Below are positions 51,866 through 60,581 of a DNA stretch of 64,000 bases, piece after piece; the stretch's first letter is position 1, and each line of letters starts with the position of its first letter. This stretch comes from Williamsoniiplasma luminosum. Lineage in GTDB: Bacteria; Bacillota_I; Bacilli_A; Mycoplasmatales; Mycoplasmataceae. The notes beneath the pieces are model-generated. The model did no database searches. It had not been told where the DNA came from and was given only the letters and a program-made list of their open reading frames with translations. Both the position numbers and the translations under genes were made by a program. The stretch covers positions 868,001 through 932,000 of the forward strand of contig NZ_CP024963.1 in the NCBI RefSeq assembly GCF_002803985.1, in the 5' to 3' direction.

Positions 51866-52008
51866 AACTATGATTTGCGGACATTTAAATCAAAATATCA
51901 TTAAATCTTTTCAAATAAATCCTCCGAAAGTTTTTATTTAATTGAAGAATTTGATTGAGATGTGCAAATAAAAAACATTATGAAATAAAAGGAGTTCAAA
52001 AAGAAAGA

Positions 52009-53400
52009 ATGAAAAAATTATTAACATTATTAGGAAGTGTTGGAATGGTTGCTGCAACAGCTGCAACAGTTGTTGCATGTAACCCTGGCAAAAATGATGC
52101 TAAAGTATCTGATTCAACAATAAAAGTTGGTAAACATGGTGAAATCAACCTTACCAGAGATGAAATTAAAGAAGTTGAAGGATACAATGATGTAAAAGCC
52201 TATGAAGAAGGTTTTGTTCCAGCACCAGCTACAAAAGCGGATGCAGAAAAACCAAAACCAGTTTTAGATAAAGTAAAACTTGAAAACGGAGTAATTAGTT
52301 TTACAGGTTTAAAAGAAGGTAAAGCTACAATCGTATTACAAGGGACAAAAAAAGCACCAGTAACACCAGGAACTAAAACTGATGCGGCAGCTCCAAAACT
52401 TGAATTGTTGAAGACAAAATTCACAGTTATTGTTGAACCAAGTAGACAACCAGTAAAATCTATTAAAGAAGTGATCAAAACTCTTGCTTTAGGTGAAATC
52501 GCTGATGTTAAACCAGAAACTATTTTAGCAACAATTAATAAAGTAAATGCTGGTGCAAATCTTCTAGCTACAGATATTAAAATTGAAGTAGGAACAGATA
52601 ACAAATCAGCAAAAATTATTGGTCAAGGTATATTTAACGGAGATGTTACAGTAACTTTTACAGTTAAAACACCAACTGAAGATAAAAGAACAGATATTGG
52701 AACTCTTGTCAAAACATTAGGGAAATTAGAAGTAGATACTACTAAAGATGCAGTTATTGATGCATTTATTGCTAAAAACCCAAATGCAAAATTAGTTAAA
52801 GATGAATTACAAATTAAAGATGAATTAGCTGCAGATGCAACTACAGCTAAAATTGAAGTTAAATCAACTTCAACAACTCACAAAGGTTTTGTAGATGTAA
52901 ATTTTGAAAAAAAACCAGTTGAAGGTTCTAAAACAGATATTGGAACTCTTGTCAAAGTATTAGGGAAATTAGAAGTAGATACTACTAAAGATGCAGTTAT
53001 TGAAGCATTTATTGCTAAAAACCCAAATGCAAAATTAGTTAAAGCTGAATTACAAATTAAAGATGAATTAGCTGCAGATGCAACTACAGCTAAAATTGAA
53101 GTTAAATCTTCAACAACTCACACTGGGGTTGCTGATGTAACTTTTGAAAAAAAACCAGTTGAAGGTTCTAAAACAGATATTGGAACTCTTGTCAAAACAT
53201 TAGGGAAATTAGAAGTAGATACTACTAAAGATGCAGTTATTGATGCATTTATTGCTAAAAACCCAAATGCAAAATTAGTTAAAGATGAATTACAAATTAA
53301 AGATGAATTAGCTGCAGATGCAACTACAGCTAAAATTGAAGTTAAATCTTCAACAACTCACACTGGGTTTGCTGATGTAACTTTTGAAAAAAAAGCATAA
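52009..53400 (+). CDS. Surface lipoprotein with three tandem spiralin-like repeats
   Basis: The protein has 463 residues from the ATG at 52009. The signal MKKLLTLLGSVGMVAATAAT ends in the lipobox VVACN (Cys about 24). Residues about 35-140 resemble a bacterial Ig-like module (ISFTGLKEGKATIVLQGTKK, KLTKFTVIVE-like end). A spacer domain follows (about 150-225). Then three near-identical units of 80-81 residues begin TDIGTLVKTLGKLEVDTTKD and include IAKNPNAKLVKDELQIKDEL. The repeat pattern recalls spiralin of Spiroplasma. GGAG stands 14 bases upstream, rather far; an upstream in-frame ATG (51961 region) lacks a signal peptide and is less likely. Confidence 0.88.
   Translation: MKKLLTLLGSVGMVAATAATVVACNPGKNDAKVSDSTIKVGKHGEINLTRDEIKEVEGYNDVKAYEEGFVPAPATKADAEKPKPVLDKVKLENGVISFTGLKEGKATIVLQGTKKAPVTPGTKTDAAAPKLELLKTKFTVIVEPSRQPVKSIKEVIKTLALGEIADVKPETILATINKVNAGANLLATDIKIEVGTDNKSAKIIGQGIFNGDVTVTFTVKTPTEDKRTDIGTLVKTLGKLEVDTTKDAVIDAFIAKNPNAKLVKDELQIKDELAADATTAKIEVKSTSTTHKGFVDVNFEKKPVEGSKTDIGTLVKVLGKLEVDTTKDAVIEAFIAKNPNAKLVKAELQIKDELAADATTAKIEVKSSTTHTGVADVTFEKKPVEGSKTDIGTLVKTLGKLEVDTTKDAVIDAFIAKNPNAKLVKDELQIKDELAADATTAKIEVKSSTTHTGFADVTFEKKA
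52690..53400 (+). repeat. Three tandem 240-243 bp repeats in the lipoprotein gene
   Basis: Units start at 52690, 52933 and 53173. They are nearly identical at the DNA level (for example Asp/Glu and Asp/Ala differences at two codons, and an extra TCA-ACT pair in the first unit). The near identity implies recent expansion and makes unit gain or loss by recombination likely. Confidence 0.95.
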
Positions 53401-55277: not shown

Positions 55278-56738
55278 CTAATTCATAAAGGCGTAAGCCA
55301 CTAAGTAGATCACGAAGACAAAATCTAAGATCCAGACTAAGTAATGAACTTGTTTAGCGCGTTTGGTAGCAATCGCCCCAATTGAATAAGCAATAATTCC
55401 TACAACAATTCCATTGGCAATTGAATAGGTAATAATCATAAAGAGAATTGTGAAAAAGGCTCCAAGTCCAATTTCGGTTTTACTTCATTCAATATCCATA
55501 ATTGATTTAATCATCACAGTTCCAATAAAGACGGTAGCCGCCCCACTTAAACAATCAGGCATCATTCTAAAAATGGGAAATAAAGCTAAACTTAAAAGAA
55601 AGCCAAAACTTGTAATGATGTTGGCAAAACCAGTTCTCGCCCCTTGCATAATTCCAACACAGCTCTCTGTGTAACATGCCATATGTGAAACTCCTAGTCC
55701 AGATCCTAAAACAGTTGCCCCAGCGTCAATCACTAAGGCTTTATGTGAAAGTTGTTGGTTTAACCCAGATGCACGATTCATTTCAATATTGACACTTGTC
55801 AATGTTCCTGTCGCATCAAAAAAGTTTAAAATAATAAAGATAAAAATTGAGATATACATTGTTGGTTTAGCTCAAATCACTGGGTTTAAAAATTGTTTAT
55901 ATGTATTTTCTAGATTCGAAAAGAACCCTTTAAATTCATCATAATTCCATTGTCCAGCTTTTCATTTGGCAGCCCCAAATGAATGTTGAATTGCTTCATT
56001 ATCAGTTACATTGGCTAAAATAATTGCAATAATAAATCCCCCAATTAGCATGACAATAATTGGGGCAAAGAACTTTTTATAAAATAAGATAATCGCCCCA
56101 AATAGAACCACAGTTCCTAAAATTATCCCTGGGTAATTTAATTTAAAATTTGATAAATTAGCAACTGGTAAACCTGATGCTGATTTTTCAACTCAACCCA
56201 TATTCACAATTCCGACATAAGCGATGAAAAATCCAATTCCAACCCCAATCGCTAAGTGAATTGAGTGCGGTAAACTTTTGATTAACATCACTCGTAATTT
56301 TGTCACTGACATAATACAAAAGATAATTGAAGAAATTGTTGTCGCAATTAATGCTCCTTCATAACCAATCCCACCTTGATTGGCAATGTTAAAGGAAAAC
56401 ATCGCGTTGAGCCCCATGCTTGGGGCTAGTGCAATTGGGACATTGGCACAAACCCCCATGATAAATGTGGCAACAAATGAAGTTAGGGCAGTGGCGACAA
56501 ACACACCCCCGGCATTCATAAATTGGTTTGGATCAGCCACACTTTGAGCTTTTCCTAATAAGTTTGGTTCAACTGATAAAATATAGATCATTGATAAAAA
56601 GGTACTAATTCCACCAATAATTTCCTTTTTAAAAGATGTATTAAAATCACTAAATTTAAAATATTTAGCGATTTTATTATTCTGAAGATAATTTTGTTTT
56701 AAGCTTTTATCAGCTTTAAATGTTTTATTCTTGTTCAT
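55278..56738 (-). CDS. Purine base permease, AzgA/PbuG family
   Basis: A proton-coupled importer of hypoxanthine, guanine or adenine. The protein has 486 residues with about 12 spans. FKKEIIGGISTFLSMIYILS, ALAPSMGLNAMFSFNIA (family motif) and SHMACYTESCVGIMQGARTG (the second signature) identify it. Trp codons are UGA. The start at 56738 follows AGGAGT. A purine riboswitch lies directly upstream and should turn the gene off when purine is plentiful. Guanine/hypoxanthine is the likely substrate given the riboswitch type. Confidence 0.92.
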
Positions 56739-56805: not shown

Positions 56806-56948
56806 AACAAAAAAGCTCTATTAATTTGGTTTTTATCCCGTAATTAATAGAGCTTTGCAGCAAAGTTCAATAGTAACTTATAGTAATTAGATCGGTCTAA
56901 TTGTAGAAACACCAACCCGTTATGTTGGTTTATACAAGCGCTATTAAC
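56806..56948 (-). promoter_or_regulatory. Purine riboswitch with terminator
   Basis: Minus strand. The aptamer (56865-56948) has P1 (GTT.TAG.CTT with AAG.CTA.AAC), J1/2 TATAA, P2 CCAAC/GTTGG with loop ATAACGG, J2/3 TGTTTCTACA, P3 ATTAG/CTAAT with loop ACCGAT, and J3/1 ACTATA. A C stands at the position that selects guanine over adenine. L2 and L3 keep the GG/CC pairs for loop docking, but L3 is one base short. The 5' strand of P1 (AGTTAATAGCG) is nearly complementary to the first arm of the terminator (GCTCTATTAATT, 56806-56857). Ligand binding should therefore favour termination. Confidence 0.9.
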
Positions 56949-57079: not shown

Positions 57080-59290
57080 TTACAATTCGATATCAATATC
57101 GATATCACCATAATTGAAAATTGAAATTATGTTTTCAAAATTTAATTCTTCAAAATTTATTAATGAATTCTCTGCAATCTCTTTTAAATGCACCATAATT
57201 CCATACTCAACAGAAGGAATCCCATGATTAAGTAGATCCATTCTTTCAACAACAAAAGAAAAAGACTCTTTACTCTTTAATGAAATTGGGTTATTTTCAC
57301 TAAAATTCTTATCAAAAACAACTGTATTCGGATTATATTTTCCAAAATATTCCTTTAAAGCCTTTTCGTCAGCATCAACGCTATCTTTTTTTGATATTGG
57401 ACTTAATATATTACTTCGTGAGGACCCATTCTTTTGAGCTAACCTAAAACTTATATCTAAAGGAGAATATTCATCTCCGATTTCTATTTCATTAGGAATG
57501 TTGTAACAAACAGAATACGAAGCTGAAAATTCTGTTTTATTTGAACTATTAATAGGAAGATTTACATCGATTTCATATTTGCCTTTTGTATCAATAAAAC
57601 CTTCTATAAAAATAAAAATATCATTTTCACCTTTTAATATTTCAAGATCTGGAATACCATGTGAATTTGATTTCGATAAATAATTGATCACCGCTCTCGC
57701 ACTTTGGGGAGAAATTTTAAAATTTTCAATTAAATATGCAACTTTTCTAGTTACCAATGGCGTTGAAAATGAAGTTCCATTTTCAATCTTTAAGTTCTCA
57801 GATAAACCAGGTAATGAATGAACAATTGGTCCACCCCAATATGGATTACCCCTATTGTTTCCGAATTCATAACAATTCGGTTTTTGATACATTCCAAATA
57901 TTTTTCCAGATCCAGACCTTTCTCATTCTAGAACTTTTCCAGTTGTTCTTGATTTATATAAACTCCCCACAGATATAGATGTTAAAGAATCTGCTGGAGC
58001 ACTTAAATTTCTATTTTCTGAATTACCAGCAGATGTTACAATTTGAACTCCAAATTCAAATTGTAATTTATCTATCAATTTTCCAAAAGGAGTTATTATT
58101 AGTTCGTTATAACTTTTCTCAGAACCTAAAGAAATGTTTCAAATTTTAATTTCATGATAATTTTCTGAAATAATTTTATGTATTTTACGCATTAACATGG
58201 ATGTTAAAATTCTTCCCTTTGGTAAAACATTAAAAGATCTAACTCTAAATATCCCTAATCCATCTTTTTCTTCGTTTATAAAATCATTTAATGAAATTAT
58301 TGACGCAACTTGTGTTCCGTGATCCAAATCTTCGTTTTGATGGATTTCCAACATATCATATTGGCTTTCAATAAATTTTTGTTCTCATCATTCATCAATA
58401 TATTTAACTCGAGAATCTATAAGACCGATCACGGTTTTATTAATATCTTCATTTTTTATAATGGGCAATTCCACTTTGCTGCTTTGAATGAATTCTTGAA
58501 CATCTAAATCAATTTCAATATCATTCATAGTTTGTGAAAAAATAAATGGATATTTTGTAACAATTTGATTGACTTTTTCAATATCGATATTTCAAAACTC
58601 TGAAGCAATTAAAGATTCTTCACTTATATCGATTCCATTATCTAAAAGTAAATCAATAATTTTATTGAAATTATTGATTTTAAGATCTAGGAATGAAAAA
58701 ATTGGTGTTTTTTCAAATGGTTCTATTAAATTTATTTTTAATTCAAGTATATTCACAAAATCGTCTAACAACTTTTTATGCATAGTTTTTAATGAACTGT
58801 ATTTAAGAGTTATTAGTTCTTTTATTTTTTGGTTTTTTTCTTCAGCTTTTTGATTAGAATTGGTTATTTCAGTAACTTCCTTTTGAAAAATGGGATTTTT
58901 CAATATGAAATCTTCAACCTCGCACATATTGTCGATTGTTTTATCCAAATCAGAAATAGATAAAGAGTAAATTACATCTATGCGTTCTAACTTATTATTA
59001 CGATTGAAAATATATTTAGACCCTATTTGATTCGGTCCAGAAAACTCATGATTTACTAAAATCGCTTGAATCCTAAATGTTTTAGGGACAACCCTTTTAT
59101 ACGAAACCGTCACAGGAAATTCTGCAAACTCTTGGAAATCTAAAAAATACTTTTTAATATTTTTTAATGATTCTATTGAATCATTTATGGTTTTTTTCAT
59201 ATCATAGTTTCATTTTTCAAATGAAAATTTTCTTCCCGTAAACTTATTAAGTTTGGTTTTAGGTTGACTATATATAATAATTTTGGACAT
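57080..59290 (-). CDS. ietS: Subtilisin-like serine protease, IetS-type
   Basis: The protein has 736 residues. Residues 1-290 are a family-specific N-terminal region without signal peptide. The S8 catalytic domain follows: VIGLIDSRVKYID (Asp) near 310, DLDHGTQVASIIS (His) near 345, VTSAGNSENRN (oxyanion Asn), ENGTSFSTPLVTRKVA (Ser) near 505. The C-terminal 200 residues are a beta-rich accessory domain. No signal peptide and no propeptide, so it works in the cytoplasm. Its ATG overlaps the stop of the AAA ATPase by one base. The pair matches the IetAS anti-phage and plasmid-incompatibility systems. Several UGA-Trp codons. Confidence 0.85.
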
Positions 59291-60300
59291 TATTTAACTT
59301 TAGCCTTTCTTTGAAGTGTTGATTTAGAAACCCCCATTGCATTTTCTAAATCCCGGTAAGTAATATCAAATCCAATAAGATCAGTGGTGTCCAATTGCAA
59401 AATTTCAATTAAAGATTTTACTAAACTTTGATTATGAATTAAACTCTTAGTTACAACCTCATCAACAATTGCATAACTTATTTTATCCAAACTATTTTTT
59501 AATATTTTATACAATACTTTTTCATCGATTTTTAATTCAAATTCAGCAACTTTATGTAAAAACATGCTCATCATTTTATCAATATCAATATCGTTTTTTT
59601 TGATTCTTACATTAAATCTTCTAACTGTAGATTCGTCAATCAGGTCGTCTCTATTTGAAATTGCAAATAAAATGGAACCGTTTGGCAAATCATCCAATGA
59701 CTTATTAAAATTTCCTATCATTCTGTGATATTCATTGTTCATATCTAAATCTCTAGACCCTATTATAGAATCAAATTCATCGATTAAAATTATTGAATTA
59801 TCATAGACACTTCTAATTTCCTCAAAGACTAAATCAATATTTTTTTGTGTTTCTCCTAATTTATAAGATATTAATTTTGATGCATTTATTGAATAAAGTT
59901 GTCTACCAGATGCTTTGCAAATACTTTTTACAAATGTTGTTTTACCCGTTCCTGGTCTTCCTGTTATTAAGATTTTCAATCCTTTCATCTTATAAATAAT
60001 TTTTTCATTGCTAATTAAATTTAAAATTTTTTCTTCTTCATGATCTAGTTCCATCATATCTTCTATATGATTCTCTAACTTTAAAATTTTTATTGGCTGC
60101 ATGTTTTTAAATTGAGAAGAAGTCTTTGAACTAGTATTTCTATTCCCCATCATATCAAGAAGGATTTTTGACTCATTATTTAAATTGCTTTCAACAAACA
60201 ACTGGTGTATTTTTTTTAAAATCTGCAACGATTCTGTATTTTCTACTTGATTTGAAATAAATTCAGCAATTTTTAATAATTCTTTATCTGCAATATTCAT
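59290..60300 (-). CDS. ietA: AAA ATPase, IetA-type
   Basis: The protein has 336 residues. The first 100 residues are helical. The ATPase core shows Walker A ITGRPGTGKTTFVKS near 113, Walker B SIILIDEFDSIIGSRD near 173, sensor LFAISNRDDLIDES and the arginine pair TVRRFNVRI. The last 20 residues (TYRDLENAMGVSKSTLQRK) look like a helix-turn-helix tail. It is translationally coupled to the protease, with which it forms the IetAS defence pair. GGAGG precedes the start at 60300. It could also bind the iterons upstream; this is inferred. Confidence 0.85.
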   Translation of the reverse strand: MNIADKELLKIAEFISNQVENTESLQILKKIHQLFVESNLNNESKILLDMMGNRNTSSKTSSQFKNMQPIKILKLENHIEDMMELDHEEEKILNLISNEKIIYKMKGLKILITGRPGTGKTTFVKSICKASGRQLYSINASKLISYKLGETQKNIDLVFEEIRSVYDNSIILIDEFDSIIGSRDLDMNNEYHRMIGNFNKSLDDLPNGSILFAISNRDDLIDESTVRRFNVRIKKNDIDIDKMMSMFLHKVAEFELKIDEKVLYKILKNSLDKISYAIVDEVVTKSLIHNQSLVKSLIEILQLDTTDLIGFDITYRDLENAMGVSKSTLQRKAKVK

Positions 60301-60329
60301 TCAAATAACCTCCATAATTCTTTATCCTT

Positions 60330-60363: not shown

Positions 60364-60436
60364 TTTGGGACAAAATTAATATTTTTGGGACAAAGATATT
60401 ATTTTTTGGGACAAAGATAATATTTTTTGGGACAAA
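60364..60436. repeat. Four iterons upstream of ietA
   Basis: TTTGGGACAAA occurs at 60364, 60384, 60405 and 60426, with spacings of 20, 21 and 21 bases, about two helical turns. Each is a near-palindrome (TTTG-N3-CAAA). All lie on one face of the helix just upstream of the ietA promoter, as operator or activator sites would. Confidence 0.9.
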
Positions 60437-60495
60437 AACAATATTTTTAACACATCCTTTTTCAAAGGATAAAGCTTTAAGAATAAATTTTAGAT

Positions 60496-60581
60496 AAAAA
60501 ACGCAGTTGGATCAACGTATTGACCCAACCGCTACAAGAGATACATCTTGCTACACTTTAATCATTTACTACTTAATGATC
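60496..60581 (-). ncRNA. Candidate small RNA between ptsI and ietA
   Basis: On the minus strand a TATAAT (60588-60593) precedes about 85 bases that end in a strong terminator: GCGGTTGGGTCAA and TTGATCCAACTGC pair around TACG, followed by TTTTTT (60496-60532). Upstream hairpins (CAAGA-TGTA-TCTCTTG and ATCATTAA.TAAATGAT) are possible. No frame with a ribosome site fits. It could be a free RNA or an attenuated leader of ietAS. Confidence 0.55.

What the first reader, a model, noticed from the sequence alone, without database searches (positions are those of the whole stretch)
57080..60300. IetAS-type defence pair in a mollicute
A cytoplasmic AAA ATPase and a subtilisin-like protease overlap by one base. 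Walker motifs and the catalytic Asp/His/Ser/Asn are intact, and the protease has no signal peptide. Established knowledge: IetA/IetS pairs were described in plasmid incompatibility in Agrobacterium and later among anti-phage systems. The ATPase presumably senses the invader and activates the protease.
Basis: partly seen in the sequence, partly recalled or inferred. Interest (0 to 1): 0.72.

Follow-up and report, generated by a model that had tools for sequence, protein, structure and literature searches.

The report
Autoregulated IetAS protease toxin-antitoxin pair
This mollicute carries a known kind of two-gene unit, an ATPase that restrains a toxic cell-internal protease; the new point is that the ATPase also ends in a DNA-binding domain and that a row of evenly spaced repeats in front of the operon matches that domain, here and in relatives across many bacteria, so the unit most likely controls its own expression.

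Summary
In a table-4 genome an AAA+ ATPase (59290-60300, -) and an intact cytoplasmic S8 protease (57080-59290, -) overlap by one base; PADLOC profiles call them IetA (1.1e-26) and IetS (5.7e-35). They are not housekeeping: 36 of 320 genomes of the order have an ietS match, and a sister species lacks the pair between the same flanking genes. Nor is this new for mollicutes: the mycoplasma homologue (TA132/133) was shown in 2019-2021 to be a toxin-antitoxin pair, where losing the ATPase alone is lethal. So the ATPase most likely restrains the protease rather than activating it; anti-phage function here is untested. New here (not found in the open papers searched): IetA ends in a helix-turn-helix, and upstream of ietA lies a four-copy array of TTTGTCCC at 20-21 bp. 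Arrays of that period precede ietA in most IetAS loci checked, in several phyla; the motif follows the HTH rather than the ATPase clade; the four mollicute IetA with eroded HTH lack it; in many Firmicutes two copies flank the -35 box. Best reading: IetA is antitoxin and autorepressor in one protein. One clade without a recognisable HTH still has arrays, unexplained.

The parts
59290..60300 (-). ietA: AAA+ ATPase with C-terminal HTH (336 aa from 60300; alternative in-frame ATG at 60315)
   Evidence: Pfam AAA 1.1e-25, PADLOC IetA 1.1e-26
59938..59961 (-). Walker A, GRPGTGKT (P0002 residues 119-126)
   Evidence: G119, G122, G124, K125 invariant
59776..59781 (-). Walker B D179-E180
   Evidence: invariant in 63 IetA
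59296..59388 (-). C-terminal helix-turn-helix of IetA (P0002 residues 310-340)
   Evidence: three helices, block pLDDT 93-95; for relatives
57080..59290 (-). ietS: S8 (subtilisin-like) protease, 736 aa, no signal peptide seen
   Evidence: PADLOC IetS 5.7e-35
58415..58417 (-). catalytic Asp292 codon
   Evidence: invariant
58319..58321 (-). catalytic His324 codon
   Evidence: invariant
58022..58024 (-). oxyanion-hole Asn423 codon
   Evidence: invariant
57770..57772 (-). catalytic Ser507 codon
   Evidence: invariant
60364..60451 (-). putative operator array: four direct repeats with core TTTGTCCC at 60429-60436, 60408-60415, 60387-60394, 60367-60374 (spacing 21, 21, 20 bp)
   Evidence: no other exact copy in the genome
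60330..60335 (-). likely -10 box TATAAT of ietAS (no good -35)
   Evidence: read; the consensus scan is no better than shuffles
60503..60532 (-). terminator-like hairpin after ptsI; it separates ptsI from ietAS
   Evidence: 13 pairs, 6 G-C

Best explanation
A chromosomal, probably horizontally acquired IetAS module that works as a toxin-antitoxin type conflict unit. IetS is an intracellular subtilisin-like protease that is toxic when free. IetA, an AAA+ ATPase of the Cdc48/Vps4/proteasome-ATPase branch, keeps it in check, presumably by direct contact. IetA also carries a C-terminal HTH that binds the 21-bp-spaced TTTGTCCC array upstream of its own gene (sites two helical turns apart, so on one face of the DNA) and represses the operon. 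When IetA is lost, inactivated or drawn away (phage takeover, loss of the locus), the operon is derepressed and IetS is freed, cuts cell proteins and stops growth. Shown here: the pair, its motifs, the HTH, the array, their co-occurrence, the patchy distribution. Shown by others in mycoplasma homologues: protease toxic, ATPase neutralises. Inferred: HTH-array binding, repression, trigger, targets, defence benefit.
For: Family: (PADLOC IetA/IetS). Toxin-antitoxin genetics in mycoplasma homologues: PMC6755753, PMC8562856. Genomes agree: every ietS match in the order has an ietA match just upstream, while ietA also occurs alone; ietS is split in G184 while ietA is whole. HTH. Array; controls 0 of 222 with a TGTCC pair. 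Motif follows HTH; eroded HTH, no array in 4 of 4 mollicute cases. Copies flanking the -35 box in 22 of 56 pairs. Split of functions between two ietA copies in G036. Accessory nature.
Against: No binding, expression, toxicity or phage data for this pair. A clade of short IetA without a recognisable HTH still has arrays in L044 and L045. In the window the array lies upstream of the likely -10 with no good -35, so activation is possible. Identity to the tested mycoplasma pairs is low (about 22-27%). NCBIfam IteA/IteS cut-offs are not reached.
Confidence: 0.72

Rival explanations
1. ATPase-activated protease: IetA recognises a phage or plasmid product and unfolds it for, or switches on, IetS, like an ATP-dependent protease.
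For: The AAA+ fold is closest to protein unfoldases: proteasome ATPases, FtsH, Cdc48, Vps4; the ATPase and protease genes are tightly coupled.
Against: In mycoplasma homologues the protease kills without the ATPase (PMC6755753, PMC8562856). It does not account for the HTH and the array.
Confidence: 0.15
2. The array is a site for another protein (host activator or repressor, plasmid or phage factor), or a remnant such as transposon ends, and IetA's HTH has other targets.
For: Arrays also occur with IetA lacking a recognisable HTH (L044, L045). In the own genus-family a plasmid-like contig of G175 has three such pairs without ietA.
Against: Motif type tracks the IetA HTH and not the ATPase clade; eroded HTH goes with no array; no second, inverted array at the other end of the window's operon; similar arrays in many phyla.
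Confidence: 0.12
3. Housekeeping ATPase and protease of protein quality control.
For: Classic AAA fold, cytoplasmic location.
Against: ietS matches in 36 of 320 genomes of the order and 2 of 4 of the genus; empty site in a sister species; relatives on plasmids and phages.
Confidence: 0.02

Closest known systems
TA132/133 (JCVISYN2_0132/0133, MMCAP2_0132/0133), AAA-ATPase / subtilisin-like protease toxin-antitoxin module of Mycoplasma mycoides
   Same: Same class of bacteria, same two protein families, ATPase gene first, genes overlapping or adjacent; homologues found in several mycoplasma species and four tested as functional (PMC8562856).
   Different: Low sequence identity (about 22-27% to mycoplasma IetS); different genomic site; function of the window's pair untested. 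The papers read do not mention an HTH or the 21-bp array.
IetAS of the PADLOC / Gao-type anti-phage set and IetA-IetS of the Agrobacterium plasmid pTiC58 (plasmid stability and incompatibility)
   Same: Both subunits match PADLOC IetA and IetS models; the pTiC58 pair is cited as the model for the mycoplasma module.
   Different: Under NCBIfam equivalog cut-offs for IteA/IteS (82.9 of 510 and 82.7 of 900 bits); chromosomal; no phage or plasmid data here. The pTiC58 paper itself was not held.
Type II toxin-antitoxin operons with an autorepressing antitoxin
   Same: Antitoxin gene first, overlapping genes, HTH in the antitoxin, repeated sites at the promoter.
   Different: The antitoxin is an AAA+ ATPase and the toxin a 736-aa protease; the operator is a long array with two-turn spacing; repression is inferred only.

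Membership tests
IetAS (PADLOC models) | AAA+ ATPase matching IetA models | tested here: met
   PDLC04232 1.1e-26, PDLC02196 1.2e-25
IetAS (PADLOC models) | S8 protease matching IetS models | tested here: met
   PDLC02197 5.7e-35, PDLC02201 6.8e-34
IetAS (PADLOC models) | ietA directly followed by ietS on the same strand | tested here: met
   one-base overlap; same order in relatives
IetAS (PADLOC models) | intact Walker and catalytic residues | tested here: met
IetAS (PADLOC models) | anti-phage activity | not testable with these tools
   needs phage challenge
NCBIfam IteA (NF042959) / IteS (NF042956) equivalogs | score above the curated cut-offs | tested here: not met
   82.9 of 510 bits, 82.7 of 900 bits; a distant relative, not an equivalog
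Mollicute TA132/133 toxin-antitoxin module | homologous AAA-ATPase and S8 protease pair with ATPase first | tested here: met
   (Mesomycoplasma hyorhinis, a species listed as carrier in PMC8562856)
Mollicute TA132/133 toxin-antitoxin module | protease toxic alone, neutralised by the ATPase | not testable with these tools
   shown by others for homologues only
Type II toxin-antitoxin with autorepression | DNA-binding domain in the antitoxin and repeated sites at its own promoter | tested here: met
   presence of both; the binding itself is not testable here
Housekeeping protein quality control | present in all relatives at the same locus | tested here: not met

The most novel reading that the evidence does not exclude
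IetA is a DNA-tethered sensor: its rest state is an AAA+ oligomer docked on the two-turn-spaced array. Invading DNA that carries matching sites, or a change of its ATP state, draws it off, which derepresses the operon and frees the protease; this would join autoregulation, plasmid incompatibility and phage defence in one mechanism for IetAS in general.
Probability: 0.15. Interest if true: 0.75.

Novelty: new member of a known kind. Interest (0 to 1): 0.48.

Why it matters
A 2025 paper still calls the mechanism of IetAS unknown (PMC11878078). The conserved HTH and the 21-bp array give a concrete DNA target and a simple assay for how this protease system is kept silent, and they recast IetA as antitoxin and repressor in one protein. 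The array is also a sequence mark for finding divergent IetAS loci and for telling intact from decayed ones. For mollicutes it ties a toxin already proposed as a kill switch to its own control element.

Tried and rejected
Housekeeping pair: rejected by distribution and empty site. A genome-wide regulon: exact motif found only in this array. Scan of viral contigs for the operator pair: 120 loci, none with IetA nearby, and about as many as chance would give by my own rough estimate, so uninformative. First genome scan with IetA peptides found nothing; repeated with an IetS alignment. The simple rule 'no HTH, no array' fails for one clade (L044, L045). The sigma-70 promoter scan is no better than shuffles in this AT-rich stretch. 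Fold searches listed AAA+ ATPases for IetA and subtilases for IetS; IetA's N-terminus and IetS's N- and C-terminal parts were barely tested. The pTiC58 paper is not held; its upstream region was not examined, and anything said of it beyond the titles and citations read is from memory. The lag test used 60 shuffles and one search used 99, so their p-values are coarse.

Full report
WHAT IS THERE. Under genetic code 4 the window holds two overlapping genes on the minus strand: an AAA+ ATPase (59290-60300; the in-frame ATG at 60315 lacks the GGAGG that precedes 60300) and a 736-aa S8 protease (57080-59290). The ATPase stop and the protease ATG share one base. Pfam gives AAA at 1.1e-25 and Peptidase_S8 at 4e-19; PADLOC gives IetA at 1.1e-26 and IetS at 5.7e-35; PHROGs gives phrog_3757 over nearly the whole ATPase and phrog_3964 over most of the protease. 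NCBIfam IteA/IteS match but far under their cut-offs. In alignments with relatives the catalytic D292, H324, N423 and S507 and the ATPase core residues do not vary.

NOT HOUSEKEEPING. IetS matches in 36 of 320 genomes of the order and in 2 of 4 of the genus. The pair lies between ptsI and a permease; a sister species with 83% identical ptsI and permease proteins has an unrelated 184-aa ORF between them and no ietAS there, and a 34% identical ietS elsewhere. Relatives sit on plasmids and phages, some near Shedu, TIR-domain or restriction-modification genes.

WHAT IS KNOWN. The homologous pair of Mycoplasma mycoides (0132/0133) is a toxin-antitoxin unit: ATPase knockout alone is lethal, the double knockout viable (PMC6755753); protease alone nearly abolishes transformation of M. 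capricolum and the ATPase rescues it, also for homologues of M. feriruminatoris, M. bovis and M. gallisepticum (PMC8562856). So the ATPase restrains the protease. The same asymmetry shows in the genomes: every ietS match in the order has an ietA match just upstream, while ietA also occurs alone, and in G184 ietS is split by a stop while ietA is whole.

THE OVERLOOKED PARTS. (1) IetA ends in a helix-turn-helix. The predicted model (63 sequences, mean pLDDT 85) has helices 310-315, 320-327 and 331-340 with block pLDDT 93-95 for residues 301-340. Pfam HTH_38 hits 20 of 63 IetA (the position of those hits was not printed), and HTH_23 and Xre-like-HTH hit the C-termini of two relatives, below their curated cut-offs. 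IetA from plasmids and phages outside mollicutes show HTH-like C-termini as well, judged by eye. (2) Directly upstream of ietA, between a terminator-like hairpin after ptsI and a TATAAT box, lie four TTTGTCCC copies spaced 21, 21 and 20 bp. No other exact copy was found in the genome.

THE ARRAY IS WIDESPREAD. Of 66 non-redundant loci from bacterial genomes and viral contigs, 43 have a self-repeat at lag 20-22 with p <= 0.05 against shuffles. Over all 115 loci pooled, the best lag is 20 or 21 in 63; upstream of 222 other genes of the genome and viral loci it is so in 18. A TGTCC pair at 18-23 bp is seen in none of those 222 controls and in about half of the ietA loci.

THE MOTIF FOLLOWS THE HTH. 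Mollicute loci: S[KR]S-type HTH, 24 of 24 with the TGTCC or TGTCT pair; SYST(I/F)RR type, TTACTCA arrays in 3 of 3; DRRT type, GTACA arrays in 2 of 2; SKAG type, TGTACACC in 1 of 1; eroded HTH, 0 of 4. Over all sets, HTH class against operator gives 64/9 versus 4/38 (Fisher p about 2e-17); the classes were drawn after looking at the data and the sequences are related, so this p overstates the case. The stronger point is the dissociation: the window's ATPase part is 36-39% identical to L006-L008, whose HTH (17-20%) and motif differ, and 21-24% identical to mycoplasma IetA, whose HTH (mostly 27-38%) and motif agree.

A NATURAL SPLIT. In G036 two ietA copies precede one ietS. The first has a TGTCCC/TTCCC pair upstream and an intact HTH but has lost conserved ATPase residues (G154N, D179Y, R232K, R233S in P0002 numbering); the second keeps the ATPase residues, but its HTH is eroded and no repeats precede it. 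This fits a division of two jobs, DNA binding and restraint. It is one case.

MECHANISM. In many Firmicutes two copies flank the -35 box (for example TTTGTCCCAAAATATTGACATTTGTCCC; a -35-like hexamer lies between the copies in 22 of 56 pairs), where a bound protein would block RNA polymerase. I therefore take IetA as autorepressor and antitoxin. In the window itself the array ends upstream of the likely -10 with no good -35, so activation cannot be excluded. IetA's ATPase resembles protein unfoldases, so restraint may involve ATP-driven remodelling. What releases IetS, and what it cuts, is unknown.

LIMITS. Nothing here measures binding, repression, toxicity or phage defence. The literature library holds open-licence papers only; in it I found no description of the HTH or the array. 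A clade of shorter IetA without a recognisable HTH has arrays of other motifs in L044 and L045, which this model does not explain.

Noticed in passing
window 56876-56939 (-): Rfam 2dG-I riboswitch (2'-deoxyguanosine class described from Mesoplasma florum), 56.1 bits against a cut-off of 51, upstream of the permease gene 55278-56738; the stretch is conserved in the sister species. Ligand not tested.
   Followed up: partly
L073:7536-12012 (G036): Two ietA copies before one ietS: the first with HTH and repeats but changed ATPase core residues, the second with an intact ATPase core but eroded HTH and no repeats; looks like a split of IetA's two jobs.
   Followed up: partly
L044, L045, L017, L047, L042, L050: A clade of short IetA (about 310-320 aa) without a recognisable HTH; L044 and L045 still have 20-21-bp arrays (GTGTATAG, TTAAGTGT), so some other DNA-binding part may be involved.
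   Followed up: no
L354, L361, L363 (G175 contig 2): Three identical copies of a TTGTCCC pair at 21 bp on a small contig of a same-family genome in which no ietA lies nearby; a possible decoy or an unrelated repeat.
   Followed up: no
window 51955-53400 (+): Lipoprotein-like ORF with three near-identical repeat units of about 80 residues (TDIGTLVK.LGKLEVDTTKDAVI...) at its C-terminal half.
   Followed up: no
L078:7590-8144: In the sister species the site between permease and ptsI holds an unrelated 184-aa ORF on the opposite strand, so the site may be an insertion spot.
   Followed up: no
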